From positions 248,001-312,000 of the forward strand of contig NZ_BOMB01000010.1 in assembly GCF_016861975.1 (NCBI RefSeq): a stretch of 64,000 nt of DNA, written 5' to 3'. Origin of the DNA: Actinocatenispora rupis (GTDB lineage: Bacteria; Actinomycetota; Actinomycetes; Mycobacteriales; Micromonosporaceae). How positions within the stretch are numbered: position 1 is the first letter of the stretch; each line of letters opens with the position of its first letter. The translations under genes were made by a program, and so were the position numbers. The notes under the pieces were generated by a model that saw nothing but the letters and a program-made list of their open reading frames with translations, was not told where the DNA came from and searched no databases. Positions 15,320-35,496 of this stretch are shown in pieces.

Positions 15320-16309
15320 GTGGAGACGATGCGGTTCCGGACACTGGTCGTCGGGCTCGGGCGCGCCGGCGCCGGCCTGCACGTCCCCGTCGTACGCGCG
15401 GCCGGCTCGCCGCACGTCGACCCCGCGCCGATCCTCGGGTACGACCCGCGCGACGTGCCCGCCCCACCCGGTACGACGGTGGTCGGGTCGCTCGCCGCGG
15501 CCGCCGCTGCGGCCGACCCGGCCCGTACGGTGGTGCACCTGTGCACGCCGCCGACCGTACGGGCCGCGGCGCTCGCCGAACTCGGCCGACTCGGGTACCG
15601 GAAGGTCCTGGTGGAGAAGCCGCTGGCGACCGACGACGCCGGCGTCGCCGAGGTACTGCGGGTGCGCGACGCGTACCGGATGGATCTGGTGGTCGTGTCG
15701 CAGTGGTTGGAGAGCGGGCTGACCGCCCGGCTGGCCGCCGCCGTCGCCGACGAGCGGTACGGGACGCTCCGGGCGCTGGCCGTCTCCCAGCACAAGCCGC
15801 GGTTCGCCCGGTCGGCCGGCGGCGACGGGCATCCGACCGCGTTCGACGTGGAGATGCCGCACGGGCTCGGCGTCGCGCTGCGGCTCGCCGGGCCGGCCGA
15901 GGTGACCGCCGCGGAGGGCGACGACCTGCGCTTCGCGGACGTGTGCGTCCCGCGGATGGGGCGGGCGTGCCTGTCGCTGCGGCACGCCAACGGCGTCCGC
16001 ACCGAGCTGCGGTCCGACCTGGCCGCGCCGATCCGGGAGCGCAGCGTCACCGCCCGGTTCGAGGGCGCGACGGTGACGGGGCACTTCCCGGTCAGCGAGA
16101 CCGACGAGTACGCGCAGGTGCTGACGACGGTGGGCGGGCGGACCGAACGCGAGGTGTTCGCCGACCCGTCGCTGACCACGTTCACCGCGCGGGCGTACGA
16201 GCACTTCGCGGGGCGCCGGGTGCTCGCCGACGTCGACCTCAACGCCGAGGTGGTACGCCTGCTCGGGGTCGGCAAGCGGCTCGCCGCACCGGTCGCCGCC
16301 CATGCCTGA
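15320..16309 (+). CDS. Gfo/Idh/MocA family NAD(P)-dependent oxidoreductase (cluster gene 1)
   Basis: About 329 residues. The Rossmann N-terminus is LVVGLGRAGAGLHVPVVRA; the family hallmark EKP occurs in KVLVEKPLATDDAGVAEVL (about residue 100). The C-terminal alpha/beta substrate domain follows, with an HGLGVALRL segment. Such enzymes oxidise or reduce ring hydroxyls of sugars, UDP-sugars or inositols. GTG 15320 is preferred because GGCGAGG lies at a good distance; ATG 15329 is an alternative. The next gene overlaps it by eight bases. It has only distant resemblance to the second Gfo/Idh gene at 18697, so the two probably act on different substrates. Confidence 0.85.
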   Translation: METMRFRTLVVGLGRAGAGLHVPVVRAAGSPHVDPAPILGYDPRDVPAPPGTTVVGSLAAAAAAADPARTVVHLCTPPTVRAAALAELGRLGYRKVLVEKPLATDDAGVAEVLRVRDAYRMDLVVVSQWLESGLTARLAAAVADERYGTLRALAVSQHKPRFARSAGGDGHPTAFDVEMPHGLGVALRLAGPAEVTAAEGDDLRFADVCVPRMGRACLSLRHANGVRTELRSDLAAPIRERSVTARFEGATVTGHFPVSETDEYAQVLTTVGGRTEREVFADPSLTTFTARAYEHFAGRRVLADVDLNAEVVRLLGVGKRLAAPVAAHA

Positions 16310-17555
16310 CCCGGTACTGACCGGCGCGGACCGGCGGCTGCTGCTGGACCTGCTGGCGCTGCCGACCGCCGGCCCGCTGGAGACCGGGACGTGCGGCGGC
16401 CGGATGTGGGAGGCGCAGCGCCGGTACGCCGCGGCGGCGGCCGAGATCGGCCTGACCGTGGCGTACCACGGGGCGCCGACGGCGGACGCGCTCGGCCCGG
16501 ACCTGCCGCTGGCCGTACGGGAGCGGCTGGACGAGCCGGGGTTCCTCGCCGAGCAGCCGAGTCTGGTGCTACGACTGGGATCCGCGCTGCCGCGCGCGGC
16601 GACGGTGCTGTTCAACGTGCACCTGGACACGGTCGCCGGCGACGTACCGGTGGGCGACGACGGGGTGCGGGTGACCGGGCGCGGCGCGATCGACGCGAAG
16701 GGTCCGGCGGTGGCGCTGCTGGCCGGGATCCGCGCCGCGACGGCGATCGATCCCGCGGTCGGCCGCGACCTCGGCGTACTGGTGTGCGCGGTGTCCGGCG
16801 AGGAGGGCGGCGCGATGGGCACCCTCGGCACCCGCCCGCTCGTCGACGCCGGGTACGTGGGGCGGCTCAACGTGTTCTGCGAGCCGACCGGCCTGACGTA
16901 CCTGGGGCGGGTGACGGCCGCGGCGACCGCCCGGATCCGCGTCACCGGGCGGGATGCGGTCGACGACCGGCCCGGCCACGGCCACAACGCGACGGTACTG
17001 CTCGGGCACGTCGCCGCGCACCTGGCCCGTACGCTGCCCGGCCGGGTCTGCGTCGGCGGCCTCACCACCGGCACCCGCCACAACCGCGTGTACGGCACCG
17101 GCGAACTCGCGCTGAACCTGCCGTACGGCAGCGCGCCGGAGGGGCGGCGGGCGGTGGACGCGGTGGAGACGGCGCTCGGCACCGCGCTGGCGGAGTTCAC
17201 CGCCACGTACTCGGGGACGCCGGGATTCGGGCGCACCGCAACGGATGCGGCGCGCATCACCCGGCTGGACTGGCTCAAGCGCGGGCTGCCCACGATCGAG
17301 GGCGTACCGGGTTGGGCCGAGGACCTGCTCGCCGCGGCGGGCGTGCCGCGCTGGCCCGCCGGCGAGCCGCCGTTCAGCTGCGACGCGATCTGGCTCGCCG
17401 GCATCCCCGACACCGCCACCGTCGTGTACGGGCCGGGCCGGCTCGACACCAACCACGCGCACGCCGCCGGCGAGTACGCCACCCTCGCCGAACTGTCCGC
17501 GTACGCCGCCGGCATCGCCCGGCTGCTCGTCACCACCGCCCGGGAGTACGCATGA
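16302..17555 (+). CDS. M20 family zinc amidohydrolase/deacylase (cluster gene 2)
   Basis: A 417-residue M20/ArgE-DapE-type metalloenzyme. Metal-site segments are present: NVHLDTVAGD (His107, Asp109), GRGAIDAKGP, the catalytic Glu pair in SGEEGGAMGT, Glu in FCEPTGL, and a C-terminal His in DTNHAHAAGEYA. The lid segment GHGHNATVLL is also typical. Members remove N-acyl groups or cleave amides of amino acids and amino sugars; here it may deprotect or hydrolyse a cluster intermediate. It overlaps both neighbours (ATG inside the previous gene, ATGA into the next), so all are co-translated. Confidence 0.88.
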   Translation: MPDPVLTGADRRLLLDLLALPTAGPLETGTCGGRMWEAQRRYAAAAAEIGLTVAYHGAPTADALGPDLPLAVRERLDEPGFLAEQPSLVLRLGSALPRAATVLFNVHLDTVAGDVPVGDDGVRVTGRGAIDAKGPAVALLAGIRAATAIDPAVGRDLGVLVCAVSGEEGGAMGTLGTRPLVDAGYVGRLNVFCEPTGLTYLGRVTAAATARIRVTGRDAVDDRPGHGHNATVLLGHVAAHLARTLPGRVCVGGLTTGTRHNRVYGTGELALNLPYGSAPEGRRAVDAVETALGTALAEFTATYSGTPGFGRTATDAARITRLDWLKRGLPTIEGVPGWAEDLLAAAGVPRWPAGEPPFSCDAIWLAGIPDTATVVYGPGRLDTNHAHAAGEYATLAELSAYAAGIARLLVTTAREYA

Positions 17556-18700
17556 CCGACGTACCGCGGCCGTCGACCGCGCTCGCCGACCGGTCCGCCA
17601 CCGACCCGCTGCCGTACTCGGGGCTGCTGACGTTCACCACCCGGGTGTTCGTCGCCCGCGGCGTACCGTGCGAGCGGGCGCGGCGGGCCGCGGAAGCGCT
17701 CTGTTACGGCGATCTGACCGGTACCGACTCGCACGGCCTGGTCAACCTGACCCGGCTGTACCTGCCGCTGCTGGACGCCGGGCGGGCCGATCCGCGCGCC
17801 GCACCGGTCGTCCTCGCCGACCGGGGTGCGGCGGTCCGCGTCGACGCCCGCCGCGCGCTCGGCCTGTGGCACGCCAGCGACGCGATGGACCTGGCCGCCG
17901 ACCGGGCCGCCGAGTACGGGGTGGGGCTGGTGTCGGTGCGCGGCGGCACGCACGTCGGCTGCGCCGGGTACCACGCGCTGCGCGCCGTACGCCGCGGCAT
18001 GGTCGGGCTGGTCGCCAGCAACTGCGGCGGGCAGCGGATCGCCCGGCCGCCGGGCGGCGCCGTCGCCATGCTCGGTACGAACCCGCTCGCGGTGGCCGCG
18101 CCGACCGGCACCCGCCACCCGTACGTGCTGGACATGAGCACCACCGTGGTACCGACCGGTCGGGTCCGGGCCGCGGCGCGTGCCGGGCGCGCGATCCCGG
18201 CCGGCTGGCTGGCCGACGACCGCGGCGCGCCGGTCACCGACCCCACCGCGTACGACCGCGGCGAGGCGCACCTGCTGTGGCTGGGCGGCACGCCGGAAAC
18301 CGGCTCGTACAAGGGATTCGGGCTCGGGTTGGCGGTGGAGGTGCTGGCCGCGCTGGTGTCCGGGTCGGGCACCGGGCCGGCACCGGAGGCGCTGACCGGT
18401 GACGGCCGGCCGACCGGCCGCGACGACGACATCGGCTACACCGCCGTCGCGATCGCCCCCGGTACGCTGCGCGACCCGGCAACCATCGCCGACGACGCGC
18501 GGCGGATGTTCGGCGCACTGCTCGACTGCCCGCCCACCGGTACGGACCCGGTCCGCCACCCCGGCTGGTACGAGGCGGAACGGGCGGCGACCCGGCAGCG
18601 CGCGGGAGTACCGCTGGCGGGTCCGCTCGCCGCGGAGCTGCGCGCGCTGTCCGCCGCGACGGGCGTCCCGTTCCCGCTTCCCGTGGCGGGTGCGCGATGA
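17552..18700 (+). CDS. Ldh2-family (malate/L-sulfolactate-type) dehydrogenase (cluster gene 3)
   Basis: A 382-residue protein of the Ldh2/malate-lactate dehydrogenase fold. Conserved parts are the first helix SGLLTFTTRVFVARGV, the catalytic-region DLTGTDSHGLVNLTRLYL, the cofactor-loop VGLVSVRGGTHVGCAGYHAL, AMLGTNPLAVAAPTG, and ETGSYKGFGLGLAVEVL near the C-terminus. Family members reduce 2-oxo acids or cyclic imino acids with NAD(P)H and differ from ordinary LDH. In this cluster it may make a 2-hydroxy or 2-amino acid unit. It overlaps the genes on both sides by four bases. The central segment looks somewhat shorter than usual. Confidence 0.85.
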   Translation: MTDVPRPSTALADRSATDPLPYSGLLTFTTRVFVARGVPCERARRAAEALCYGDLTGTDSHGLVNLTRLYLPLLDAGRADPRAAPVVLADRGAAVRVDARRALGLWHASDAMDLAADRAAEYGVGLVSVRGGTHVGCAGYHALRAVRRGMVGLVASNCGGQRIARPPGGAVAMLGTNPLAVAAPTGTRHPYVLDMSTTVVPTGRVRAAARAGRAIPAGWLADDRGAPVTDPTAYDRGEAHLLWLGGTPETGSYKGFGLGLAVEVLAALVSGSGTGPAPEALTGDGRPTGRDDDIGYTAVAIAPGTLRDPATIADDARRMFGALLDCPPTGTDPVRHPGWYEAERAATRQRAGVPLAGPLAAELRALSAATGVPFPLPVAGAR

Positions 18701-19647
18701 GCCTGCGCATCGGGATCGTCGGACTCGGCGTCATCTCCCGGTACTACCTGGCCGCACTCGACGCCGTCCCCGACGTACGGCTCGGCGCGGTGTGCGACAC
18801 CGACCCGGACCGGCTGGCCGCGCACCCCGGTGTGCCCGCGTACCGGGACCACCGGGCGCTGCTCGCCGCGGGCGACGTGGACGCCGTCGTCGTCACCGTG
18901 CCGAACGACCTGCACGCGCCGATCTGCCGCGACGTGCTGACCGCCGGAATGCCGGTGTGCGTGGAGAAACCGCTCGCCACCACCCTCGACGAGGGGCTGG
19001 CCGTCGACCGGCTCGCGGCCGACCGGGGCGTGCCGCTGTTCACCGCGTTCCACCGCCGCTACAACACGTCCGTACGCGAGCTGGTGCGCGCCGCGCCCGA
19101 CCCGGTCGCCGTGACCGTCCGGTACCACGAGCGGATCGAGGAGCACGTCGGCGCCGACCGCTGGTACCTGGACCCGGCGCGTACCGGGGGCGGGTGCGTC
19201 GCCGACAACGGACCCAACGCGTACGACCTGGCGCGGCTGCTGCTCGGCGAGCTGACCGTGACCGGCGCCCGGATCGGCGTCGACGCCGCCGGGGTGGACC
19301 GCACCGCGCTGGTCGACCTGCGCGCCGACTCCGGCGCCACCTGCCGCGTCGACCTCGACTGGTCGTACCCGCACGGCGAACGCAAGGACATCGAGGTACG
19401 TCTCGCCGACGGCACCGTACGGCGGGCCGACATGCTCGCCGGGCACGACGGCTTCAAGGCGTCGCTGTGGCACGAGTACCGGGCGATCGTGCGGGGGTTC
19501 GCGGCGGTGGCGACCGGCCGCGTGGACCACCGGACCGACGGCGGGCTCGCCGCGCTGAGCCTGGTGACCGACACGTACCGGCTGGGCCTGCCGACCGCGA
19601 CGCCGGTACGCGTCGGGGCGGAACGACCGGGACGGGTGGCGCGGTGA
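18697..19647 (+). CDS. Gfo/Idh/MocA family oxidoreductase (cluster gene 4)
   Basis: A 316-residue oxidoreductase with a standard N-terminus (RIGIVGLGVISRYYLAALDA; VCDTDPDRL), VTVPNDLHAPICRDVL, the EKP motif in VCVEKPLATTLDEG, and AFHRRYNTSVREL at the domain junction. A substrate-binding His/Asp-rich segment (LDPARTGGGCVADNGPNAYD) follows. It is closer to the sugar/inositol dehydrogenase group than cluster gene 1. A Gfo/Idh plus DegT pair is the established way to install a ring amino group (for example UDP-kanosamine formation by RifL/RifK-type enzymes or the Wbp pathway). It shares ATGA junctions with the genes on both sides. Confidence 0.88.
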   Translation: MSLRIGIVGLGVISRYYLAALDAVPDVRLGAVCDTDPDRLAAHPGVPAYRDHRALLAAGDVDAVVVTVPNDLHAPICRDVLTAGMPVCVEKPLATTLDEGLAVDRLAADRGVPLFTAFHRRYNTSVRELVRAAPDPVAVTVRYHERIEEHVGADRWYLDPARTGGGCVADNGPNAYDLARLLLGELTVTGARIGVDAAGVDRTALVDLRADSGATCRVDLDWSYPHGERKDIEVRLADGTVRRADMLAGHDGFKASLWHEYRAIVRGFAAVATGRVDHRTDGGLAALSLVTDTYRLGLPTATPVRVGAERPGRVAR

Positions 19648-20042
19648 TCGAGGACGGTGCGAAGCGTTCGGTGTCCGGCGCGCTGGTGAAGGTGCTGGTG
19701 CACCGGCGCGACGACCGCGGCATGCGGCTGGAGGAGTACGCCAGCCGCTGCGTACGGGTCGGTGAACTGCACGAGCTGGTCACCACCGACCACACCGACA
19801 CCGAGCCGGGCGCGCGCGTCGACCGGGTCGGGTTCCTCGGGTTCGTGGAGATCGGCGTGGCCGGCGTGATCGACCGCGGCGACGAGGTACGCCTCGGCGA
19901 CCGTACGGTGGGGCGGGTACTCGGCTTCGACGCCTGCCACTTCCCGAACCACTACAACATCCTGATCGCCACCGACGTCCCGCGTACCGGCGCGGATCTG
20001 GCGCTGGCGCCGGAGCTGCCGGTGACGTTCGGCCGGCCGTAG
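19644..20042 (+). CDS. Small conserved-looking protein of unknown function (cluster gene 5)
   Basis: A 132-residue soluble protein. It looks beta-rich (GALVKVLVHRRDDRGMRLEE; VGFLGFVEIGVAGVIDRGDE; VRLGDRTVGRVLGFDACHFP; NHYNILIATD). The His/Asn segment HFPNHYN could bind metal or substrate. I do not recognise the family with confidence; it may belong to a recent actinobacterial DUF. The GTG start overlaps the previous stop by four bases, so it is co-translated with the oxidoreductase. It is the last gene of operon A, closed by a strong hairpin. An enzyme-assisting or small-molecule-binding role is possible. Confidence 0.75.
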   Translation: MIEDGAKRSVSGALVKVLVHRRDDRGMRLEEYASRCVRVGELHELVTTDHTDTEPGARVDRVGFLGFVEIGVAGVIDRGDEVRLGDRTVGRVLGFDACHFPNHYNILIATDVPRTGADLALAPELPVTFGRP

Positions 20043-20077
20043 GGGCGGATCGGTTGTGGCGCAAGGGAAGACGCCGC

Positions 20078-20109
20078 GGGCGGCCGGCCCCCAGGGGGAC
20101 CGGCCGCCC
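20078..20109. terminator. Bidirectional hairpin terminator between operon A and the EF-hand gene
   Basis: GGGCGGCCGG at 20078-20087 pairs perfectly with CCGGCCGCCC at 20100-20109; the 12-base interval (CCCCC/GGGGG) can extend the stem. It lies between the convergent stops at 20042 and 20125, so it can serve both strands. Confidence 0.8.
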
Positions 20110-20124
20110 GATGGTGCTGCCGCG

Positions 20125-20661
20125 TCAGCGACCGAGCAGGGAGAACTCCAGCCTGCCCAGGTGGTAGTCCTTGACGGCCTGGACGAGTTCCTGGACCGAC
20201 AGTTCGCCGTTGCCGTCGGTGTCGATGCGCCGGAACGCCTCGTCCGCCACGGACGGATCCGCGCCCACCGCCTGGATCCAGCGGCGGAACTCCTGCGGGC
20301 TGACCGCGCCGTCGCCGTCGGTGTCCGCGAGCTTGAGGATCGCGTTGATGGTCGGCTGCAGCACCTTGGCGAACCCGGCCCCGTCGTCGGCCAGGATGTG
20401 CCGGTCGGCGACCTGCCGGAACTGGTCCGGGGTCATCGAACCGTTGTTGCCCACGCCCGCCTTGTTGGCGAGGTAGTCCCACATGCCGAGGTACGCGTTC
20501 ATCAGCTTGGTCGCCTTCGGCGAGTCCTCCGGCTCGCCGAAGCCGCGCAGGATGCGCCGCGCCTCGGCCTCCCAGTCGGACTTGTCGATCGTGCCGTCAC
20601 CGTTGACGTCCCACAGATCGAACCGCTCCTGAAGACGCTGCTCCTGAACGACAGTAGCCAT
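20125..20661 (-). CDS. Calerythrin-like four-EF-hand calcium-binding protein
   Basis: A 178-residue protein close in length to calerythrin of Saccharopolyspora (about 177). Calcium loops: DVNGDGTIDKSDWE (about residue 18), DTDGDGAVSPQEF (about 113) and DTDGNGELSVQEL (about 146) are intact 12-residue loops. The second one (GVGNNGSMTPDQF, about 70) has lost key acidic residues, as in calerythrin where site 2 does not bind. It is a cytoplasmic Ca2+ buffer or sensor. The ATG follows a GGAG ribosome site. It is divergent from operon B and convergent with operon A; its presence inside a biosynthetic locus may be coincidental. Confidence 0.93.
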   Translation of the reverse strand: MATVVQEQRLQERFDLWDVNGDGTIDKSDWEAEARRILRGFGEPEDSPKATKLMNAYLGMWDYLANKAGVGNNGSMTPDQFRQVADRHILADDGAGFAKVLQPTINAILKLADTDGDGAVSPQEFRRWIQAVGADPSVADEAFRRIDTDGNGELSVQELVQAVKDYHLGRLEFSLLGR

Positions 20662-20760
20662 GACGTCGTGCTCCTTAAGCCTCGTGAGGTCGCCAGCTCT
20701 TACTGCTCGCGAGAGGGTGTGGTCGGTACTGCCGGGGACCGGGTGCACGGCCGGCCCACC

Positions 20761-20778
20761 GCTGCGAGGCCTCGCAGC
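20761..20778. promoter_or_regulatory. Perfect 18-bp palindrome in the divergent EF-hand/operon B promoter region
   Basis: GCTGCGAGGCCTCGCAGC is fully self-complementary. It sits in the 267-nt divergent region between the EF-hand start (20661) and the first aminotransferase (20929). A TAGTGT-like -10 for the minus strand lies just beside it. It could be the operator for one or both directions. Confidence 0.5.
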
Positions 20779-20928
20779 CACGACACTACCATTCGTGACT
20801 CTGTGGCTACTGTCTGTGCAAGAATCGGGGGAGAATCAGGGCAACCTCGGCGACCGCGCGCCACCGATGCGTACCGTCCGCGTTTCGGCGGGGCCGGTGC
20901 GCGGTGCCGGATGCGGGAAAGGAGCAGC

Positions 20929-22131
20929 GTGCTCAGTCAGGTCCAGACCGCCACCGACCGGACCGACGCGGGCCCACCGCCCGTCCCGTTCTTCAGCCAG
21001 GCAAGGACCTTCGACGCGCTGTGGCCGGTACTCGAACGCCGGCTGTCCGACGTCGTCAGCCACGGCAAGTACTCGCACGGCCGTACGGTCGCGGAGCTGG
21101 AGGCGGCGCTCGCGGCCTGGACCGGCGCCGCCCGCGTGGTCGGCGTCAACTCCGGTACGGACGCGCTCGTGCTGCTGCTGCGCGCCTGCGGCCTCGAACC
21201 CGGCGACGAGGTACTGGTGCCGGCGTTCACGTTCGTGGCGTCCGCGTCCGCGGTCACGCTCGCCCGCGGCCGGCCGGTGTTCACCGACATCGACCCCGTC
21301 ACGTACGGGATGGACGTCGACTCGGCCGCCGCCGCGGTCACCGACCGGACCCGGATCGTCCAGCCGGTGCACCTGTTCTGCCAGCTCGCCGACATGGCCG
21401 GGGTACGCGCGCTCGCCGCGCGACACCGCCTGACCGTACTGGAGGACAGCGCGGAGGCGGTGGGGATGCGGTGGGACGGCGTGCATGCCGGGTTGCTCGG
21501 CGCGGGTGGCGTGCTGTCCTTCTTCCCCACCAAGACACTCGGCGCGATCGGCGACGCCGGCGCCGTACTCACCAACGACGAGCGGATCGCCGACACGGTC
21601 GCCGCGCTGCGCCACCACGGCCGCGCCGGCCGTACGATCGACAACTTTCCCGGCATCTCCAACGCGACCGTGCTGGCCGGGGTCAACAGCAAGATGGACG
21701 ACATCCAGGCCGCCGTACTGCTGGCGAAGCTGGCCGGGCTGGACGCGCAGATCGCCCGCCGCGCCGAGCTGGCCGCGCGGTACACGGAGCTGTTGCGGCC
21801 GTGCTCGGGGGTGCGGCGGCTGCCGACGGTGGTGGACCGCGGGGTGCCGACGCGCGCGGTGTTCTACGTCTACCTGATCGAGGTGGACCGGCGCGACGAG
21901 CTGGCCGAACACCTTGCCGCACAAGGGATCGGCACCGAGACGTACTACCCGGTGCCGCTGCACCTGCAACCGTCGTTCGCCCATCTGGGGTACCGGGAGG
22001 GGCAGTTTCCGAACGCGGAGGCGGCCTGCCGGCGCACGCTGGCGCTGCCGCTGTACCCGGACCTCGCGGACGCGGCGGTCGACACGGTGTGCGCGGCGAT
22101 CCGGACGTTCTACGACGGGAGAAGCGCATGA
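20929..22131 (+). CDS. DegT/DnrJ/EryC1 PLP-dependent sugar aminotransferase (cluster gene 6)
   Basis: A 400-residue type-I-fold aminotransferase of the DegT/DnrJ/EryC1/StrS family. Conserved parts are GVNSGTDALVLLLRACGLEP, EVLVPAFTFVASASAVTLAR, the PLP-Asp region LEDSAEAVG, and the Schiff-base Lys202 in SFFPTKTLGAIGDAGAVLT. A C-terminal YYPVPLHLQPSF segment is typical of nucleotide-sugar aminotransferases. It probably transfers an amino group to a keto-sugar or keto-cyclitol. The GTG start follows AAAGGAG. The stop overlaps the next gene by four bases. First gene of operon B. Confidence 0.93.
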   Translation: MLSQVQTATDRTDAGPPPVPFFSQARTFDALWPVLERRLSDVVSHGKYSHGRTVAELEAALAAWTGAARVVGVNSGTDALVLLLRACGLEPGDEVLVPAFTFVASASAVTLARGRPVFTDIDPVTYGMDVDSAAAAVTDRTRIVQPVHLFCQLADMAGVRALAARHRLTVLEDSAEAVGMRWDGVHAGLLGAGGVLSFFPTKTLGAIGDAGAVLTNDERIADTVAALRHHGRAGRTIDNFPGISNATVLAGVNSKMDDIQAAVLLAKLAGLDAQIARRAELAARYTELLRPCSGVRRLPTVVDRGVPTRAVFYVYLIEVDRRDELAEHLAAQGIGTETYYPVPLHLQPSFAHLGYREGQFPNAEAACRRTLALPLYPDLADAAVDTVCAAIRTFYDGRSA

Positions 22132-23243: not shown

Positions 23244-24178
23244 GTACGGTGCTGGCGCGGCCGGTCGCGCACCGGATCCGCGCGTACGTGCGGCTGGCGA
23301 AGCTGGACATCTTCGACTACTACCTGAGCCTGCTGGTGGTGTGGTCGCTGCTGGCCCCGGCCGTACGGTGGCAGCCGCGCACGCTCGCGGTGCTGCTCGT
23401 ACTGCTGGCCGGGCAGGTGTGCGTGGCGGCGGCGATGGTCACGTTCGACGACGTCACCGGGTACCGGGACGGCAGCGACGCGGCCAACTACGGCCCGGAC
23501 GCGCCGGCCCGCCGGCTGGCCCGCAAACCGTTGCTGGCCGGTACGTTGACCGAGCCGGAGGCGATCCGGTTCGGCTGGCTGACGGCCGCCGCGGGCACCG
23601 CGCTCTGGGCGCTGGCCGTCGCCGTCGCCCCGCACCATCCACTGTGGACGGTGTTGGTCGCCGCGCTCTGCCTCGCCAGTTCCGTCCAGTACTCGTGGGG
23701 CGTGAAGCTGTCGTACCGGGGCGGGCAGGAGGTGTTCCTCGCCGGGCTCGGCATCGGCTGGGTGCTGGCCCCGTACGGGCTGCTGGCCGGGACGCCGGGC
23801 GGCTTCGTCGCCGTCCAGGCGGTGCTGTTCGGGTTGGGGCCGCTGCTGTTCGGCGTCTGGTCGAACACCAACGACATCGCGGGCGACGCCGCGGTCGGCC
23901 GGATCACCGTCGCGGCAAGGGTTTCCGCCCGCGGCAACGCGGCGTTCATCGCCGCGGTGACGGTCGGCGAGATGCTGCTGATCGTGCTCGCCCCGGCGTT
24001 CGGCGCGCCTTGGTGGTTCCCGCTGGTACTGCTGCCCGTGGTGCTGGCCCGGATCGGGCAGCTCGTGACCGGGCTCGGCCGCGGCGACATCCTGGCCGCG
24101 CGCCGGCTCGGGATCCGCGCGCACCGGCTCACCGTCGCCCTCCTGGTACTGGCGAACCTCGTCGCGGCATGGGTCTGA
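23240..24178 (+). CDS. UbiA-family membrane prenyltransferase (cluster gene 8)
   Basis: A 312-residue protein with about eight or nine membrane helices. The two Asp-rich motifs of the UbiA superfamily are present: FDDVTGYRDGSD (Asp70, 71, 77, 80) and TNDIAGDAAVGR (Asn211, Asp212, Asp216). These bind the Mg2+-diphosphate of an isoprenoid donor. The acceptor is usually aromatic or a polar head group. Its location directly after two aminotransferases and before an FAD enzyme suggests prenylation of a cluster product at the membrane. ATG overlaps the previous stop. A short 57-nt gap follows. Confidence 0.88.
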   Translation: MSTVLARPVAHRIRAYVRLAKLDIFDYYLSLLVVWSLLAPAVRWQPRTLAVLLVLLAGQVCVAAAMVTFDDVTGYRDGSDAANYGPDAPARRLARKPLLAGTLTEPEAIRFGWLTAAAGTALWALAVAVAPHHPLWTVLVAALCLASSVQYSWGVKLSYRGGQEVFLAGLGIGWVLAPYGLLAGTPGGFVAVQAVLFGLGPLLFGVWSNTNDIAGDAAVGRITVAARVSARGNAAFIAAVTVGEMLLIVLAPAFGAPWWFPLVLLPVVLARIGQLVTGLGRGDILAARRLGIRAHRLTVALLVLANLVAAWV

Positions 24179-24184
24179 GGGGGC

Positions 24185-24214
24185 AGGGGTGACAGCGGCA
24201 GGGGTGGCAGCGGC
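24185..24214 (+). repeat. Two tandem 15-base repeats in the UbiA-FAD gene gap
   Basis: GGGGTGACAGCGGCA is followed directly by GGGGTGGCAGCGGCA (one base different) in the 57-nt gap between genes 8 and 9. This is the only real gap in operon B. Its role is unknown. Confidence 0.5.
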
Positions 24215-24235
24215 ATGGTTGCGAGAGGTGGGGGA

Positions 24236-25564
24236 ATGAGCGGGGAACTGGACGTCGCCGTGGTCGGCGCCGGGATCGCCGGCCTGTCCGTGGCGTACGC
24301 GCTGCGCCGGTCCGGGCGGCGGGTCCGCGTGTACGAGGCGGCCGACGCGGTCGGCGGGCGGATGCGGACCGAGCGGCGCGACGGGTACCGGATCGACACG
24401 GGGGCGGAGATGCTGTCCGGGCGCGGGTACCCGGCGACGTGGCGGATGATCCGCCGGCTCGGGCTGACGCCCGCGGACGTGCCGCGCATCGACGGCGGTC
24501 TTGCCTTGTGGCGCAACGGAAAGGCCCGTCGGAACGCGGGCCGGCCGCTCGGCCTGCTGACCGGCGCCGGGATGTCCGTCCGGGGCCGGCTCGCGATGCT
24601 GCGGTTCGGCCGGGAGCTGGCCGCCGCGCCCGACCCGGAACACCCGGAACGCTCCGCGCTGGCCGGGCTCACGGTCGCCGACCTCGCCGAACGGTACGAC
24701 CCGGAACTGGCGGCGGCGGTGCTGCGCCCGCTCGTCGGCGGGTTCTTCGGCGCGCTGCCGGACACGTTCGGCGCGGCGCCGCTGGTGGCGCACCTGGCCG
24801 CGGTGGGCGACCCGACGCGGTGGCGCACGTACGCCGGGGGCATGGACCGGATGGCGCGCGAACTCGCCGGCCGCGTCGACGTGACCACCGGTACCCCGGT
24901 CGAGTCGGTACGCGCGGCGGACGGCGGCGTGGTGCTGTCGGTGCACGACGGCGAGGTCCGCGCCCGCGCGGCCGTCCTCGCGGTCCCGGCTCCGGTGGCC
25001 GCCGCGCTGCACCCGGAAGCCCCGGCCGACGAGGCCGAGTACCTGGCCGCCAGCACGTACGCGCCGATGCTGCGGGTGGCGTTCCTGCTGGACCGGCCGC
25101 TGCGGCCGACCGGGTCGCGGGCCGCCGCGGTACTGGTGCGCGGCACCGACAACCCGCACCTGGCGGTGCTGACCGTGGACCACCACAAGGCGATCGACCG
25201 CGCGCCGCTCGGCCGCGGCCTGGTCACCGCTATCGCGTCCCCGGCGGCGAGCCGGCTGCTGCTGTCCGCGCCGGACTGCCCGGTCGCCGCGCTGCTCGCC
25301 GAACAGGCCGAGCGGTACGTGCCGGGGCTCGCGCCGGCGATCCGCGCGACCGTCGTGCACCGCTTCCCGTACGGGCTGCCCGAGTGCACGCCGACGGCGC
25401 TGGCCCGGCGCGAGGCGTTCCTGCGCCGCCCGGTCCGGCCGGTCGAGTACGCGGGGGACTGGGTGCTTGCCCGGCCGTGCAGCGAGGGCGCGGTCCGGTC
25501 CGCCGAACTCGCCGTGCCCCGCGTACTGTCCATGGTGGACAGTCCGGTGGTGGTCGGTGCCTGA
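24236..25564 (+). CDS. FAD-dependent amine-oxidase/protoporphyrinogen-oxidase-like enzyme (cluster gene 9)
   Basis: A 442-residue flavoprotein. The N-terminal FAD-binding GxGxxG motif occurs in VAVVGAGIAGLSVAYALRRS, followed by YEAADAVGGRMRTERRDGY and IDTGAEMLSGRGYP. The C-terminal FAD segment is EYAGDWVLARPCSEGAVRSA. This architecture is shared by monoamine oxidases, protoporphyrinogen oxidases and phytoene-desaturase-like enzymes. It might oxidise an amine or desaturate a prenyl-derived part. ATG 24236 follows a GGTGGGGG purine run. The end overlaps the next gene by eight bases. Confidence 0.88.
   Translation: MSGELDVAVVGAGIAGLSVAYALRRSGRRVRVYEAADAVGGRMRTERRDGYRIDTGAEMLSGRGYPATWRMIRRLGLTPADVPRIDGGLALWRNGKARRNAGRPLGLLTGAGMSVRGRLAMLRFGRELAAAPDPEHPERSALAGLTVADLAERYDPELAAAVLRPLVGGFFGALPDTFGAAPLVAHLAAVGDPTRWRTYAGGMDRMARELAGRVDVTTGTPVESVRAADGGVVLSVHDGEVRARAAVLAVPAPVAAALHPEAPADEAEYLAASTYAPMLRVAFLLDRPLRPTGSRAAAVLVRGTDNPHLAVLTVDHHKAIDRAPLGRGLVTAIASPAASRLLLSAPDCPVAALLAEQAERYVPGLAPAIRATVVHRFPYGLPECTPTALARREAFLRRPVRPVEYAGDWVLARPCSEGAVRSAELAVPRVLSMVDSPVVVGA
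25525..25543. repeat. Dispersed GTCCAC-type palindrome (family representative)
   Basis: Here ACTGTCCA and TGGACAGT flank TGG, near the end of the FAD-enzyme gene. The related 13-base palindrome GTCCAC-T/A-GTGGAC is exact at 26695-26707, 37484-37496, 39001-39013 and 41908-41920. Variants occur at 37061-37073 and 32774-32787. Most lie in frame inside coding regions, three encoding Ser-Thr-Val-Asp. Confidence 0.55.
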
Positions 25565-26333
25565 GACCGGCTACCTGTTCGAGGCGGCCGACGAGGCCGA
25601 CCGCCTCGCGTACGGCGAGACGCTGTGGGATCCGGGCAGCCGGGAGCGGCTCACCGCGCTCGGCATCGGCCCCGGGGCGGCCTGCCTGGAGGTCGGCGCC
25701 GGCCGCGGCGGGCTCGCGCACTGGCTCGCCGAACGCGTCGGCTCCACCGGCCGGGTCACCGCCACCGATCTGCGTACCGACCGGCTCGACTGGTTGCGCC
25801 GGCACCGGGTCGACGTCCGCGCGCACGACATCGACCGCGACGAGTCGCCCACCGGGTACGACCTGGTGCACGCCCGGCTGGTGGTGCCGCACCTCGCCGA
25901 CCCGGCCGCCGCCGTGGCCCGGATGTGCCGCGCGCTGCGGCCCGGCGGCCTGCTCGTACTGGAGGACTTCGACGGGGCGTCGCTGTTCCGGCACGCCGAC
26001 ACGGACGACTTCTGCGCGGACGTCAAGGCCGCCGCGTACGAGGTGATGGCGGACGCCGGGTACCGCGCGCGGTGCGGGCTGCTCGACGCCCGGCTCGCCG
26101 CGGGCGCCGGCCTGGCCGACGTCCGGGCCGAGGGCCGCGCGGTCGTCGTACGCGGCGGCACGGACCAGGCCCGCTGGTACGTGCGGTGGCTCGCGCGGCT
26201 GCGTACCGCGATGGTGGCGCGGGGGCGGGTGACCGACGACGACATCGACCGGGCGCTCGCCGACCTGTCCGACCCGCGCAACACGTGGCTGTCCCAGGTG
26301 ATGGTGACCGTGACCGGGAGGTCGTTGGCATGA
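25557..26333 (+). CDS. SAM-dependent methyltransferase (cluster gene 10)
   Basis: A 258-residue class I methyltransferase. Motif I is AACLEVGAGRGGLAHWLAER, then RVTATDLRTDRLDWL, YDLVHARLVVPHLADP, and CRALRPGGLLVLEDFDGAS. This pattern is common to small-molecule O- or N-methyltransferases of secondary metabolism. The C-terminal half (WYVRWLARLRTAMVARGRV) is helical and may bind substrate. The GTG start lies eight bases inside the previous gene, and the stop overlaps the ligase start by four. The acceptor atom is unknown. Confidence 0.88.
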   Translation: MPETGYLFEAADEADRLAYGETLWDPGSRERLTALGIGPGAACLEVGAGRGGLAHWLAERVGSTGRVTATDLRTDRLDWLRRHRVDVRAHDIDRDESPTGYDLVHARLVVPHLADPAAAVARMCRALRPGGLLVLEDFDGASLFRHADTDDFCADVKAAAYEVMADAGYRARCGLLDARLAAGAGLADVRAEGRAVVVRGGTDQARWYVRWLARLRTAMVARGRVTDDDIDRALADLSDPRNTWLSQVMVTVTGRSLA

Positions 26334-27919
26334 CACCGAAACCGCTCGATCTGGGGATCCTGTTCGACGTCGCCGCCGACCGCGGCGTGCCCACCGAGGT
26401 ACGCCTGAGCCGGCCGTTCGACCTCGCGCCGGACGGCGGGGTGAGCTGGCGGATGCCGGCGCTCGCCGAGCTGGTCCGGGACACCGCGGGCGCGCTGCGG
26501 GCGGCCGGAGCCGGGCCGGGCGCGACCGTCGCCGTGGTCAAGGACAACCACTGGGACATCGTGCTGCTGGCCTGCGCGGCGGCCCGGATCGGCGCGGTGC
26601 CGGCGCTGCTGTCCGCCGACCTGCCCCCCGACACCCTCGCCGTACTCCTCGCGCGCCTCGACCCCGCCGTCCTCGTCGCCGCCCCCCGGGTACTGTCCAC
26701 TGTGGACATGGCCGGCCTGGTGGAGCGGACCGTCGCGCTGCCCGGCCCCGGTACGGTGCCCGCCGGGGCGGTGCCGCTGGACGACCTGCGCGGGCACCGG
26801 GCACCCCCGCCGTACCGGCGGCGCGACGACGACCCGCTCGTCGTGCACCACACCTCCGGTACCACCGGAGTACCGAAGCTGGTGGTGCACTCGACGCGGA
26901 CGATCATCCGGCGGCTGGCCGGTTTCGAGGCCGTACGCTGGCCGCTGCTCGCCAGCCGCCGCACCGACACCGTCGCCTCGGCGATCGCGTTCCACCACGG
27001 CCGGGCGGTGCCGTGGTCGGTCAGCGTCACCTGGCTCGCGCCGCGGCGGATGCTGCTGCTCGCCGACCGCGACCCCGCCGTCGCCGGGCCCGTCCTGCGC
27101 GCCTGCCCGCCGTCGACGCTGGAAACCGACCCCGCCACGTACGTCCGGTGGACGCCGCTGACGGCCGGCGCCGACACCCCGTTCCGCGACGTCCGCCTGT
27201 ACGTCAGCACCTTCGACGCAGCGCACCCGCCGATGGTCCGCGCGTACCTGGGGGCGAGCCGGCGGCGGCTGCCGGTCTGGATGCAGGGCTGGGGGCAGAC
27301 CGAGACCGGGCCGCTGACGTTCCGGTTCCTCACCCGCGGTTCGCTCGCCGCGCGCGGCCGGCGCCGCCCGACCACCCGCGACCTCGGCCGTCCGGTACCG
27401 GGGCGCACCAGGCTGCGGATCGTCGACGAGCACACGTTCCAGCCGGTACCGGACGGGCGGCCCGGGTTGGTGCTCGCCCGTACCGACGCGCGCTGCCTCG
27501 GCTACGTGGGCGAGCAGGACCGCTGGGACGACAAGGTCGACGGCCCCTGGTGGAACACCGGCGACATCGGCGTACTGTCCCGCGGCGCGCTGCGGCTGCT
27601 CGACCGCGAGGTCGACCGGGTACCGGGCGGAAGCTGCCTCGAACTGGAGGACGTACTGGAGGACCGGCTCCCCGCGGTGGTGGAGGCGACGGTGCTCGCC
27701 GCGCCGGGCGGCCCGGCCGTACCGGTGCTGGTGACCGCGGATGGGCGGCTCGACGGCACCGCGTTCCGGGCCGCGACGCGCGACCTGCCGCCGCTCACCG
27801 AACCCGTCGTCGTCACCTGGGACGAACTGCCCCGCACCGCCACCGGCAAGGTACGCCGGGCCGAACTGCGCGCCCGACTGCGTACCGCCGCGGTACCCGG
27901 TACCGGCCGCTGGACCTGA
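26330..27919 (+). CDS. AMP-forming acyl/aryl-CoA synthetase-like ligase (cluster gene 11)
   Basis: A 529-residue class I adenylate-forming enzyme. Core motifs: A3 HHTSGTTGVPKLVVHS (residues 173-188, Lys183), A5 GWGQTETG, A7 PWWNTGDIG, A8 LDREVDRVPGG, and A10 ELPRTATGKVRR with the C-terminal catalytic Lys near 507. It activates a carboxylic acid as acyl-AMP and may pass it to CoA, an amine or a carrier. No carrier protein is encoded nearby, so direct amide formation or CoA activation is possible. The A8 region varies from the usual GRxKD motif. Last gene of operon B; its stop lies inside a tandem repeat. Confidence 0.88.
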   Translation: MTPKPLDLGILFDVAADRGVPTEVRLSRPFDLAPDGGVSWRMPALAELVRDTAGALRAAGAGPGATVAVVKDNHWDIVLLACAAARIGAVPALLSADLPPDTLAVLLARLDPAVLVAAPRVLSTVDMAGLVERTVALPGPGTVPAGAVPLDDLRGHRAPPPYRRRDDDPLVVHHTSGTTGVPKLVVHSTRTIIRRLAGFEAVRWPLLASRRTDTVASAIAFHHGRAVPWSVSVTWLAPRRMLLLADRDPAVAGPVLRACPPSTLETDPATYVRWTPLTAGADTPFRDVRLYVSTFDAAHPPMVRAYLGASRRRLPVWMQGWGQTETGPLTFRFLTRGSLAARGRRRPTTRDLGRPVPGRTRLRIVDEHTFQPVPDGRPGLVLARTDARCLGYVGEQDRWDDKVDGPWWNTGDIGVLSRGALRLLDREVDRVPGGSCLELEDVLEDRLPAVVEATVLAAPGGPAVPVLVTADGRLDGTAFRAATRDLPPLTEPVVVTWDELPRTATGKVRRAELRARLRTAAVPGTGRWT

Positions 27920-28057
27920 AATCCTTGCGTCCCAAGCGTTCGGCGATCGCGGGTACCGGCTGCTGGACCTGGATCCTTGCGTCCCAGGCGTGTCGGTGGC
28001 CGCGGGTACCGGTGGAGCTGAAGGCCGGAAAGCGTTGCGTCACAAGCGTTCGGCGTG
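27899..28057. repeat. Three tandem ~53-bp repeats spanning two convergent gene ends
   Basis: Units begin with GGTACCGG at 27899, 27952 and 28005, giving an exact 53-base period. Units 1 and 2 share GGTACCGG, CTGGACCT, CCTTGCGTCCCA and TTCGG/TGTCGG-type ends; unit 3 is more diverged. The stop of the ligase (27917-27919) lies in unit 1 and the stop of the convergent dehydrogenase (28040-28042) in unit 3. Each unit carries a TTGCG-CAAGCG element of the family described at 32855. Confidence 0.75.
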
Positions 28058-29293
28058 CCCGGTGTCCTCGATCCGGCCCCGCGTGTCCAGCAGCGCCGGT
28101 ACGGTCGCGGCGAGCGCGTCGAGGTCGTAGCAGCCGTGGTCGGCGAGCACGATCGCCAGGTCCGCGGCGGGGCGGGCCGGGTCCTCCGCGCGCGGCACCG
28201 GCACCCCGTCCACCGTCCAGGCCGGCACGTACGGGTCGTGGTAGCGCACGCGCGCCCCCGCCGCGCGCAGCGCCCGCGCCACCGGTACCGCCGGCGTCTC
28301 CCGTACGTCCGCCACGTCCGGCTTGTACGTGACGCCCAGCAGCAGCACGTCCGCGCCGGCGAGCGTACGGCCGGTCCGGTCCAGCAGCCGCCCGGCCCGC
28401 TCCGCCACGTACGCCGGCATGGCGCCGTTGACCGCGCCGGCCGCGGCGATCAGCGGCGTGTCGACACCGGCCGCGGCTGCCCGGTGCGCCAGGTACACGG
28501 GGTCGACGGGGATGCAGTGCCCGCCGACGCCCGGCCCCGGCCGGAACGACGAGAACCCGAACGGCTTGGTACCGGCGCAGCGCACCACGTCCCACACGTC
28601 GATGTCGAGCGCGTCGCAGATCCGCGCGACCTCGTTCACCAGCGCGATGTTCACGCTCCGGTACGCGTTCTCCAGCAGCTTCGCCATCTCCGCCTCGCGG
28701 GTACCGGCGGCGACGACCACGTCGGCGGCGAGCGACTCGTAGAACACCTGGGCGCGTTTGGCGCAGACCGGCGTGTGCCCGGCGACGACCTTCGGCGTGG
28801 TCGCGAGACCGTACCGGGTGTTGCCGGGGTCGATCCGTTCCGGCGAGTACGCCAGCGCGAAGTCCAGCCCGGCGCGCAGCCCGCCGCGTTCCAGGATCGG
28901 GCGTACCAGCTCGTCGGTGGTGCCGGGCCAGCTCGTCGACTCGACGACGACCAGGGTGCCGGGGCGCAGGTGCGCGCCGACCGCGTCGACCGCGGCGACC
29001 AGGTCGGCGAGATCCGGCGCCCGGTCCGCCGTCAGCCCCGTCGGTACGCACACGACGACGGTGTCGGCGCCCGCGACGGCCGCCGGGTCGCCGGTCGCCC
29101 GGAACCCCGCGCCGAGCATGGCCCGTACGTCGGCGTCGGACACGTCGCCGACGTGTGAGCGGCCGGCGGTCAGCCCGGCGACGACGGCCGGTGCGCTGTC
29201 CACGCCGACCACGCCCAGCCCCACGGAACAGGCACGCCGGGCCAGCGGCAGCCCCACGTACCCCAGGCCCACCACGGTCAGGCACGGTGACAC
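28040..29293 (-). CDS. Nucleotide-sugar (UDP-GlcNAc/ManNAc-type) 6-dehydrogenase
   Basis: A 417-residue NAD-dependent enzyme of the UDP-glucose/UDP-ManNAc dehydrogenase family. Rossmann start: LTVVGLGYVGLPLARRACSV; middle: STSWPGTTDELVRPIL and FALAYSPERIDPGN; catalytic Cys in GVGGHCIPVDPVYLAHR; C-terminal domain: LLLGVTYKPDVADVRETPA. The GGHCIPVDP form is typical of WbpA/TviB-like UDP-N-acetylhexosamine dehydrogenases, which make uronic acids. In the Wbp pathway this enzyme works with a Gfo/Idh and a DegT enzyme, both present upstream. GTG 29293 follows AGGAGGA. It is convergent with operon B, so co-regulation is not certain. Confidence 0.88.
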   Translation of the reverse strand: MSPCLTVVGLGYVGLPLARRACSVGLGVVGVDSAPAVVAGLTAGRSHVGDVSDADVRAMLGAGFRATGDPAAVAGADTVVVCVPTGLTADRAPDLADLVAAVDAVGAHLRPGTLVVVESTSWPGTTDELVRPILERGGLRAGLDFALAYSPERIDPGNTRYGLATTPKVVAGHTPVCAKRAQVFYESLAADVVVAAGTREAEMAKLLENAYRSVNIALVNEVARICDALDIDVWDVVRCAGTKPFGFSSFRPGPGVGGHCIPVDPVYLAHRAAAAGVDTPLIAAAGAVNGAMPAYVAERAGRLLDRTGRTLAGADVLLLGVTYKPDVADVRETPAVPVARALRAAGARVRYHDPYVPAWTVDGVPVPRAEDPARPAADLAIVLADHGCYDLDALAATVPALLDTRGRIEDTGHAERL

Positions 29294-34494: not shown

Positions 34495-34541
34495 ACGGTG
34501 TCCTCCTCGGCGGACCGCCCACCCACGGTAGCCCCCGCACC

Positions 34542-34559
34542 CTCGTAGGAACGTACGAG
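34542..34559. promoter_or_regulatory. CTCGTA-N6-TACGAG inverted repeat in the pucR/uraD divergent region
   Basis: Two 6-base arms spaced by 6 bases sit in the 175-nt region between the PucR start (34494) and the first purine-degradation gene (34670). Position and symmetry make it a candidate PucR site. A CCCGCC/GGCGGG hairpin (about 34614-34636) is also present. Confidence 0.5.
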
Positions 34560-35493: not shown

Positions 35494-35496
35494 CGC

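What the first reader, a model, noticed from the sequence alone, without database searches (positions are those of the whole stretch)
15320..29293. Candidate undescribed biosynthetic gene cluster without a core synthase
Eleven genes in two overlapping operons encode two Gfo/Idh oxidoreductases, two DegT aminotransferases, an Ldh2-type dehydrogenase, an M20 deacylase, a UbiA prenyltransferase, an FAD oxidase-like enzyme, a methyltransferase, an adenylate-forming ligase and a small unknown protein. A UDP-sugar dehydrogenase is convergent. The enzymes point to an aminated sugar or cyclitol unit joined to prenyl and acyl parts. There is no PKS, NRPS, glycosyltransferase, terpene cyclase, carrier protein or in-cluster regulator, so it fits no standard class I know.
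Basis: partly seen in the sequence, partly recalled or inferred. Interest (0 to 1): 0.8.

Follow-up and report, generated by a model that had tools for sequence, protein, structure and literature searches.

The report
Widespread uncharacterised actinomycete biosynthesis gene cluster
The window holds a set of about fourteen genes that recurs as a unit in soil bacteria and seems to turn a sugar, by two aminations and several rearrangements, into a small compound that is then joined to an oily prenyl chain; no matching described pathway was found.

Summary
All named enzymes are at 15320-29293 with expected catalytic motifs. Missed: an EF-hand gene (20125-20748, minus) between the operons, a small secreted-looking protein (29367-29672, minus), and the absence of a TIM-barrel sugar isomerase that all 76 M20-bearing named relatives have.

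The operons form one pathway. Of 80 named relatives found through the DUF6917 protein, 74 have g16-g19, 69 also both DegT genes, 50 also UbiA (lower bounds: 10 kb flanks). Nine genomes or records with the core but no DegT in the fetched locus all have a close DegT pair elsewhere or just beyond the flank; none of 12 DUF6917-free genomes has one, nor have two DUF6917 carriers that lack the core. One relative carries all 13 families g16-g28, split over two contigs.

Best reading: a dedicated pathway that oxidises and twice aminates a nucleotide sugar, reshapes it into a small acid, prenylates, methylates and adenylates it. A sugar-derived (hetero)aromatic amino acid is favoured but unproven. DUF6917 models confidently as all-beta with no significant PDB fold match. 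Limited literature searches showed no characterised counterpart; antiSMASH and MIBiG were unavailable.

The parts
15320..16309 (+). g16, divergent Gfo/Idh-type NAD(P) oxidoreductase
   Evidence: no Pfam hit; EKP motif; family profile matches Gfo/Idh structures, best E 5e-8; in 75 of 80 named relatives
16302..17555 (+). g17, M20 metallohydrolase/deacylase
   Evidence: PF01546 E 1.6e-11; HLDT and GEEGG; in 76 of 80 named relatives
17552..18700 (+). g18, Ldh2-type dehydrogenase (malate/lactate/ureidoglycolate/piperideine-carboxylate reductase family)
   Evidence: PF02615 E 1.3e-93; in 78 of 80 named relatives
18697..19647 (+). g19, Gfo/Idh oxidoreductase, nearest solved structures L-arabinose 1-dehydrogenases
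   Evidence: PF01408 E 5.4e-24; 6jnk E 4.3e-23; in 78 of 80 named relatives
19644..20042 (+). g20, DUF6917 protein used as search marker; all-beta model, no significant PDB fold match
   Evidence: PF21891 E 6.6e-56; model pLDDT 95.4; 0 Foldseek matches at E<=0.001
20125..20748 (-). g21, EF-hand calcium-binding protein between the operons
   Evidence: PF13499 E 4.4e-24; three canonical loops; in 58 of 80 named relatives
20911..22131 (+). g22, DegT/DnrJ/EryC1/StrS aminotransferase
   Evidence: PF01041 E 1.8e-105; Lys in SFFPTKT; in 73 of 80 named relatives
22128..23243 (+). g23, second DegT-family aminotransferase, 41% identical to g22 (start 22128 preferred by me to the 22089: 4-base overlap with g22)
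   Evidence: PF01041 E 6.3e-87; SFVQVKT; 41%; in 72 of 80 named relatives
23240..24178 (+). g24, UbiA-superfamily prenyltransferase
   Evidence: PF01040 E 1.2e-11; both Asp-rich motifs; family profile hits UBIAD1 (8djk) E 1.1e-5; in 54 of 80 named relatives
24236..25564 (+). g25, FAD-dependent amine-oxidase/desaturase-like oxidoreductase
   Evidence: PF01593 E 2e-40; its protein cluster in 44 of 80 named relatives
25557..26333 (+). g26, SAM-dependent methyltransferase
   Evidence: PF13489 E 2.6e-13; in 11 of 80 named relatives, a lower bound because of the 10 kb flanks
26330..27919 (+). g27, AMP-forming acyl/aryl ligase
   Evidence: PF00501 E 3.9e-40; TSGTTGVPK and TGKV; in 13 of 80 named relatives, a lower bound
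28040..29293 (-). g28, UDP-sugar 6-dehydrogenase; UDP-HexNAc type suggested only weakly
   Evidence: TIGR03026 E 8.6e-117; next best UDP-ManNAc dehydrogenase models, below their cut-offs; GHCIP; in 50 of 80 named relatives
29367..29672 (-). g29, 101-aa secreted-looking protein
   Evidence: start at 29672 with GGAGG upstream; no Pfam match for residues scanned; family c10 in 26 of 80 named relatives

Best explanation
A single, patchily distributed actinomycete specialised-metabolite pathway. Shown: the gene set and its conservation as a unit. Inferred from enzyme families: UDP-sugar dehydrogenase g28 makes a UDP-uronic acid; the Gfo/Idh enzymes oxidise it and the paired DegT enzymes put in two amino groups; a sugar isomerase (absent here, lost or replaced in trans), the M20 hydrolase, Ldh2 and DUF6917 reshape it into a small nitrogen-bearing carboxylic acid; UbiA attaches a prenyl chain; the FAD enzyme and methyltransferase tailor it; the AMP ligase activates it or an acyl partner. 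The EF-hand and secreted-looking proteins are probably handling, storage or export helpers (guess). No carrier-protein assembly line is needed.
For: Unit: 74 of 80 named relatives have g16-g19 together, 69 with both DegT, 50 with UbiA too, 43 with the UDP-sugar dehydrogenase too. Linkage without proximity: in 9 of 9 genomes/records with core genes but no DegT in the fetched locus, a tandem DegT pair (first member 59-70% identical to g22) lies elsewhere or just beyond the flank; the best g22 match is at most 39% in 12 of 12 DUF6917-free genomes that I picked and in two DUF6917 carriers without the core (39% in G612, none in the Thermomicrobium plasmid). In G249 two fetched stretches on different contigs together hold every one of g16-g28; a Streptomyces plasmid holds 11 of these 13 in two blocks. 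Pairwise distances of 12 families correlate, r 0.68-0.90. UDP-sugar dehydrogenase heads the gene run in four same-family genomes. Prenyl role: DXS in 9, IspG in 7, IspH in 5 and polyprenyl synthase in 4 of 80 named loci. Methylation role: MetK and a PfkB-type kinase (recognised by eye) beside the set in G600. Expected motifs present (motifs recalled).
Against: The isomerase found in all 76 M20-bearing named relatives is absent from this cluster and no ortholog was found in the genome, so this copy may be incomplete. UbiA, FAD enzyme, ligase and methyltransferase are not in every relative within 10 kb; the UDP-sugar dehydrogenase is missing from the fetched stretches of G384, G346, G250 and G267, and the plasmid lacks the EF-hand and FAD genes in the parts seen. 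Four same-family genomes pair the core with Trp genes and show no UbiA and no g16 in the 34 kb seen, so prenylation is not universal. DUF6917 also occurs outside the pathway. The 12 control genomes are relatives of the window, whereas the nine test genomes come mostly from other orders, so the control is not matched. UDP-sugar substrate identity rests on weak family resemblance. Part of the distance correlation can be shared ancestry.
Confidence: 0.6

Rival explanations
1. The product is a non-aromatic amino-sugar acid or aminocyclitol head joined to a prenyl chain: a membrane-active amphiphile exported by a lipid transporter.
For: DegT and Gfo/Idh proteins resemble amino-sugar enzymes; an MMPL-type transporter (c29, named by eye from its sequence) is in 4 of 80 named loci and has homologues near the second blocks of the plasmid and G691; polyprenyl synthase in 4 of 80.
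Against: No cyclitol synthase or glycosyltransferase among the scanned genes; the only solved structure hit by the UbiA family profile is UBIAD1, which prenylates an aromatic ring (reaction recalled).
Confidence: 0.3
2. A cell-surface polysaccharide or envelope glycolipid pathway: a UDP-diamino-uronic acid is made for a surface polymer and UbiA makes a lipid carrier.
For: UDP-HexNAc dehydrogenase plus Gfo/Idh plus DegT is the WbpA-WbpB-WbpE kind of set (set recalled); WbpE is among the best structure hits of both DegT proteins.
Against: No glycosyltransferase or acyltransferase among the scanned genes; patchy distribution (8 of 300 family genomes with DUF6917, own included); M20, Ldh2, ligase and DUF6917 have no evident place in it.
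Confidence: 0.12
3. Two unrelated operons that happen to be neighbours.
For: They are separated by an oppositely oriented EF-hand gene in the window and are divergent in many relatives.
Against: They co-occur even when on different contigs or in separate blocks (against 100, 101).
Confidence: 0.02
4. A decaying or altered cluster in this genome: the loss of the isomerase gene has switched off or changed the pathway.
For: Among core-bearing loci examined the isomerase is absent only here; no ortholog in the 96.8% complete genome.
Against: The other genes have open frames, expected motifs and tight overlaps; a TIM-barrel homologue elsewhere in the genome (contig 28) matches profile positions 29-254 of 290 at E 1e-14 and could stand in.
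Confidence: 0.2
5. A catabolic pathway for an unusual sugar acid, since Gfo/Idh, TIM isomerase, M20 and Ldh2 are common in catabolism.
For: Family tendencies.
Against: UbiA, AMP ligase, methyltransferase, paired aminotransferases and, in some relatives, added MEP-pathway genes point to synthesis.
Confidence: 0.05

Closest known systems
UDP-GlcNAc3NA pathway (WbpA/WbpB/WbpE, WlbA/WlbC; pathway recalled)
   Same: UDP-HexNAc 6-dehydrogenase, Gfo/Idh dehydrogenase and DegT aminotransferase in series; WbpE is among the top structure hits of both DegT proteins
   Different: here two DegT, plus M20, Ldh2, (in relatives) TIM isomerase, DUF6917, UbiA and AMP ligase; no acyltransferase or glycosyltransferase among the scanned genes
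Congocidine/distamycin pyrrole precursor (4-acetamidopyrrole-2-carboxylate)
   Same: a nitrogen heteroaromatic acid of sugar origin (title of Lautru 2012 seen as a reference in PMC4047045, passages read); an amidohydrolase also takes part there
   Different: pyrrolamide clusters carry NRPS domains; none found here. Gene-by-gene homology was not tested
Kanosamine/AHBA and NtdABC amino-sugar sets
   Same: Gfo/Idh plus DegT partnership (recalled); NtdA and AHBA synthase are hits of both DegT proteins
   Different: no phosphatase, kinase or dehydroquinate-synthase-like gene among the scanned genes; other partner enzymes
Menaquinone/UBIAD1 prenylation
   Same: UbiA superfamily; profile of the g24 family hits UBIAD1 at E 1.1e-5; AMP ligase and methyltransferase alongside
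   Different: g24 reaches no NCBIfam model at E 0.01; the host has four other UbiA-like matches
Prenylated pyrroles (pyrrolostatin, nitropyrrolins, heronapyrroles; structures partly recalled)
   Same: prenyl chain on a small nitrogen heteroaromatic, the product type I favour
   Different: no sequence link was tested; PMC10897937 (passages read) says nitropyrrolin biosynthesis is unresolved and a candidate heronapyrrole cluster is unverified

Membership tests
DUF6917 (PF21891) | match above the curated Pfam score | tested here: met
   188 bits against a cut-off of 27
DUF6917-core pathway (defined here) | Gfo/Idh, TIM isomerase, M20, Ldh2, Gfo/Idh, DUF6917 in this order | tested here: not met
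   all but the TIM isomerase are present in order; isomerase absent
DUF6917-core pathway (defined here) | tandem DegT pair in the genome | tested here: met
   g22, g23; general rule supported
2-deoxystreptamine or C7-cyclitol pathway | sugar phosphate cyclase (DOI or valiolone synthase; DHQ-synthase fold) in the cluster | tested here: not met
   no such Pfam hit among the genes scanned; rest of the genome not searched
Pyrrolamide (congocidine) cluster | free-standing NRPS condensation and carrier domains | tested here: not met
   none among the scanned genes
UDP-GlcNAc3NA surface-sugar pathway | UDP-HexNAc 6-dehydrogenase, Gfo/Idh and DegT together | tested here: inconclusive
   all three families present, but g28 stays below the cut-offs of the substrate-specific models
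UDP-GlcNAc3NA surface-sugar pathway | N-acetyltransferase and glycosyltransferase alongside | tested here: not met
   none among the scanned genes of 15320-29293
UbiA superfamily | two Asp-rich motifs and Pfam score | tested here: met
   DDVTGYRDGSD, NTNDIAGD; 44.8 bits against 34.2
Aromatic prenyltransferase of the MenA/UBIAD1 clade | aromatic acceptor | tested here: inconclusive
   only a profile hit at E 1.1e-5; substrate needs an assay
Known antiSMASH/MIBiG cluster classes | match to a characterised cluster | not testable with these tools
   neither antiSMASH nor MIBiG was available

The most novel reading that the evidence does not exclude
The core with its DegT pair is a new, non-shikimate route from a nucleotide sugar to a (hetero)aromatic amino acid, an anthranilate or aminopicolinate/aminopyrrole analogue. 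Different bacteria elaborate it differently: UbiA prenylates it in the window type, extra DXS/IspG/IspH/polyprenyl-synthase genes feed the chain in some Streptomyces and Actinomadura, and duplicated Trp-pathway genes turn it into a tryptophan analogue in four same-family genomes, guarded by a B3/4 tRNA-editing protein and an EamA-like exporter. DUF6917 would be a new enzyme with a new fold.
Probability: 0.2. Interest if true: 0.88.

Novelty: new variant of a known kind. Interest (0 to 1): 0.66.

Why it matters
A gene set kept together across several actinomycete orders for a product that no source I could search describes is a direct lead to a new class of natural product that standard detectors, which look for PKS, NRPS or terpene synthases, would probably pass over. 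DUF6917 is a useful, though not exclusive, marker for finding it, and as an all-beta protein with no recognised fold match it is a candidate for new enzymology. If the aromatic reading is right, it would add another route from sugars to aromatic amino-acid-like compounds.

Tried and rejected
Chance neighbourhood: rejected. Cyclitol or C7-cyclitol pathway: no cyclase among the scanned genes. Pyrrolamide membership: no NRPS domains. Literature on DUF6917 or the gene combination: searches returned 0 papers each (one search used 'Gfo Idh' without its slash, which may not match the usual spelling); some searches listed only 20 of 48, 15 of 92 and 10 of 2,755 papers and 12 of 12, and no matching cluster was seen in those titles and abstract starts; two searches looked for the congocidine precedent. 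Annotated phages: no DUF6917. Rfam and tRNA on the window: none. Promoter/terminator scan: nothing clearly above shuffles. DUF6917 against PDB sequences by profile: one hit at E 0.46, not meaningful; by fold: 128 matches at E<=10, none at E<=0.001. A specialised TrpD in the trp variant: the intact cluster copies (2 of 4 genomes) read KAGN where all 4 housekeeping copies read KHGN (the motif's role in substrate binding is recalled), but G651 keeps only a remnant and G581 gave no cluster TrpD match, which weakens the idea that TrpD takes a special substrate. Self-resistance (spare DXS or Trp enzymes as insensitive copies) was considered for the variants and is not excluded.

Full report
WHAT IS THERE. 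The window is positions 248001-312000 of contig 10 of a 7.83-Mb genome, 70-78% G+C in 2-kb steps. A genome put in the same family, G398, has a contig of the same length as the Catenuloplanes japonicus contig behind L042, and its ligase and methyltransferase match those of L042 at 100%, so the family is very probably Micromonosporaceae. A simple codon-position gene caller and Pfam/NCBIfam scans confirm every enzyme in the finding. The first operon is Gfo/Idh-like g16, M20 g17, Ldh2 g18, Gfo/Idh g19, DUF6917 g20. The second is DegT g22, DegT g23, UbiA g24, FAD enzyme g25, methyltransferase g26, AMP ligase g27. Neighbours within an operon overlap by 4-8 bases except g24/g25, 57 bases apart (g22/g23 overlap by 43 with the start, by 4 with the start at 22128 that I prefer). 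Between the operons lies an EF-hand gene on the other strand (g21). UDP-sugar dehydrogenase g28 is convergent, and upstream of it is a 101-aa protein with a signal-peptide-like start (g29, 29367-29672). Motif checks, with motifs recalled, found the expected residues in g16-g19 and g22-g28 and three EF-hand loops in g21.

IT IS ONE CONSERVED UNIT. A scan of one genome per species with the DUF6917 protein found 156 relatives, of which the best 80 were kept; these are ranked by similarity to the window, so they are not a random sample. Their flanks of up to 10 kb were gene-called and compared. Of 80 loci, 74 have g16, g17, g18 and g19 together, 69 also have both DegT genes, 50 also UbiA and 43 also the UDP-sugar dehydrogenase. 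UbiA and FAD genes begin near the 10-kb limit, so these, the ligase (13 of 80) and the methyltransferase (11 of 80) are lower bounds. The EF-hand family is in 58 of 80 and the secreted-looking protein family in 26 of 80. The host genome has five UbiA matches, g24 included, in 7.8 Mb, so a chance UbiA within 20 kb would be a matter of about one percent (my arithmetic).

THE LINK HOLDS WITHOUT PROXIMITY. Seven of the 80 loci had no DegT label (several are cut short by contig ends), and neither did the plasmid locus L092 or the first G249 locus. In the genomes or records behind all nine, a tandem DegT pair is present elsewhere or, for L014, just beyond the flank: the first member is 59-70% identical to g22 and the next gene 39-43%. 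In 12 genomes without DUF6917 that I picked from the listings, the best g22 match is 39% or less; these controls are relatives of the window and not matched to the nine. Two DUF6917 carriers without the core, G612 and the Thermomicrobium plasmid record, have no such pair either: best 39% and no match. So the pair tracks the core, not DUF6917 alone. In G249, one contig has c5, M20 and a Gfo/Idh-DUF6917 fusion; another has UDP-sugar dehydrogenase, EF-hand, Ldh2, a short isomerase, a g16-like gene, both DegT, UbiA, FAD enzyme, methyltransferase and ligase. Together the two stretches hold every one of g16-g28. A Streptomyces plasmid (NZ_CP107870.1) holds 11 of these 13 in two blocks, lacking EF-hand and FAD genes in the parts seen. 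Pairwise protein distances of 12 families correlate at r 0.68-0.90 across loci; shared ancestry contributes to this.

DISTRIBUTION. DUF6917 is in 11 of 394 genomes sampled across the class (own included), 8 of 300 of the family (own included), and none of the three other genomes of the own genus in that draw. This patchiness and the plasmid copy fit a specialised-metabolite cluster that moves or is often lost.

THE MISSING ISOMERASE. Of 76 named loci with the M20 gene, 74 have a xylose-isomerase-like TIM-barrel gene (PF01261) called directly upstream of it, in 73 of them right behind g16; tblastn finds it in the other two. Its closest solved relatives include tagatose 3-epimerase, UlaE, IolE, IolI and AsbF. 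It is absent from the window, where g16 and g17 overlap directly, and no ortholog was found elsewhere in the host: the best single-sequence hit was E 0.003, and the best profile hit, on contig 28, E 1e-14 over profile positions 29-254 of 290. Either this cluster works without it, another TIM barrel such as that one stands in, or the pathway is altered.

VARIANTS THAT SPEAK TO FUNCTION. (a) Three f19-family genomes (G384, G346, G250) show the fullest form: core, EF-hand, both DegT, UbiA, FAD enzyme, ligase, a CoA-transferase-III-like protein, a second AMP ligase and a methyltransferase, but no UDP-sugar dehydrogenase in the fetched stretch. (b) DXS is in 9, IspG in 7, IspH in 5 and polyprenyl synthase in 4 of the 80 named loci, which argues for a prenyl part. 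(c) G600 adds MetK and a PfkB-type kinase beside UbiA and a methyltransferase (named by eye). (d) Four same-family genomes (G567, G593, G651, G581) have a same-strand run of UDP-sugar dehydrogenase, TrpC, TrpB, TrpA, both DegT, isomerase, M20, Ldh2 and a Gfo/Idh-DUF6917 fusion, followed by a B3/4-domain gene (Pfam for G567 only); a full TrpD is present in two of the four. All four also have housekeeping TrpD and TrpC. The intact cluster TrpD copies read KAGN where the housekeeping copies read KHGN. No g16 and no UbiA were seen there. (e) DUF6917 is fused to Gfo/Idh, to DXS, and lies in one continuous frame with an alpha/beta hydrolase in G600. (f) Thermomicrobium roseum and G612 have DUF6917 in other settings, near acetolactate-synthase-like and ATP-grasp-like genes (partly named by eye), so DUF6917 is not exclusive to this pathway.

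DUF6917. An AlphaFold2 model from 35 sequences has mean pLDDT 95.4 and is all beta. Foldseek against the PDB gave no match at E<=0.001. Invariant residues in that alignment include H20, R22, R25, R35, H43, E44, D60, D96, H99, N102, H103 and N105; with the Thermomicrobium and plasmid rows, R25, R35, E44, D96, H99, N102, H103 and N105 remain. This looks like an active site. A missing match does not prove a new fold.

HOW IT PROBABLY WORKS. g28 is a UDP-sugar 6-dehydrogenase; after the general family model its best matches are UDP-ManNAc dehydrogenase models, below their cut-offs, so a UDP-HexNAc uronic acid is a possible first product. Gfo/Idh plus DegT is a known way to oxidise a sugar carbon and aminate it (recalled); the closest solved DegT relatives include 2oga (DesV, name recalled) and WbpE. 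M20 would remove an N-acyl group, and Ldh2 would reduce or oxidise a 2-keto or cyclic-imine acid; its family includes the piperideine-2-carboxylate reductase. UbiA then prenylates. Its family profile finds only UBIAD1 among solved structures (E 1.1e-5), a hint that the acceptor is aromatic. With the Trp-gene variant, this leads me to favour a small (hetero)aromatic amino acid as the head group. The steps from g28 onward are inference; only the gene set, its conservation and the co-occurrence are shown.

PRECEDENT AND NOVELTY. A sugar origin for a nitrogen heteroaromatic acid is known for congocidine: the title of Lautru 2012 is cited in PMC4047045 (passages read). Prenylated nitropyrroles are known from Streptomyces, and PMC10897937 (passages read) calls nitropyrrolin biosynthesis unresolved. 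All other papers were seen only as search listings. I saw no description of this gene set (only part of the papers found by 51, 82 and 83 was listed). Most subscription literature, antiSMASH and MIBiG were out of reach, so 'undescribed' remains provisional.

Noticed in passing
window 16302-16309: Overlap of g16 and g17, where M20-bearing named relatives have a TIM-barrel isomerase gene upstream of M20; no remnant was detected by tblastn on the window (best E 0.009, elsewhere).
   Followed up: yes
window 20125-20748 (-): EF-hand protein on the opposite strand between the two operons; family present in 58 of 80 named relatives, in two copies in some; role unknown.
   Followed up: partly
L125:3855-16526 (G567; likewise G593, G651, G581): Variant in the same family joining the core to Trp-pathway genes and a B3/4 tRNA-editing domain; TrpD is a remnant in G651, not found in G581, and reads KAGN instead of KHGN where intact.
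   Followed up: partly
L092:17989-20316: DUF6917 fused to the N terminus of a DXS on a Streptomyces plasmid; annotated simply as dxs.
   Followed up: yes
L093:11944-14191: Thermomicrobium roseum DUF6917 gene beside a thiamine-diphosphate enzyme, with a proline-racemase-family gene and lysX nearby, outside any core pathway; the plasmid has no g22-like DegT.
   Followed up: partly
L129:4364-16772 (G612): DUF6917 next to threonine-synthase-like, acetolactate-synthase-like, three ATP-grasp-like and a radical-SAM-like gene (all named by eye): another possible uncharacterised cluster.
   Followed up: no
window 32980-36369: PucR regulator and uricase genes, probably part of a urate catabolism block unrelated to the finding.
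   Followed up: no
window 12801-13691 (-): 296-aa protein with no Pfam or NCBIfam match and high third-position GC; no homologue in the relatives' loci at the cut-off used.
   Followed up: no
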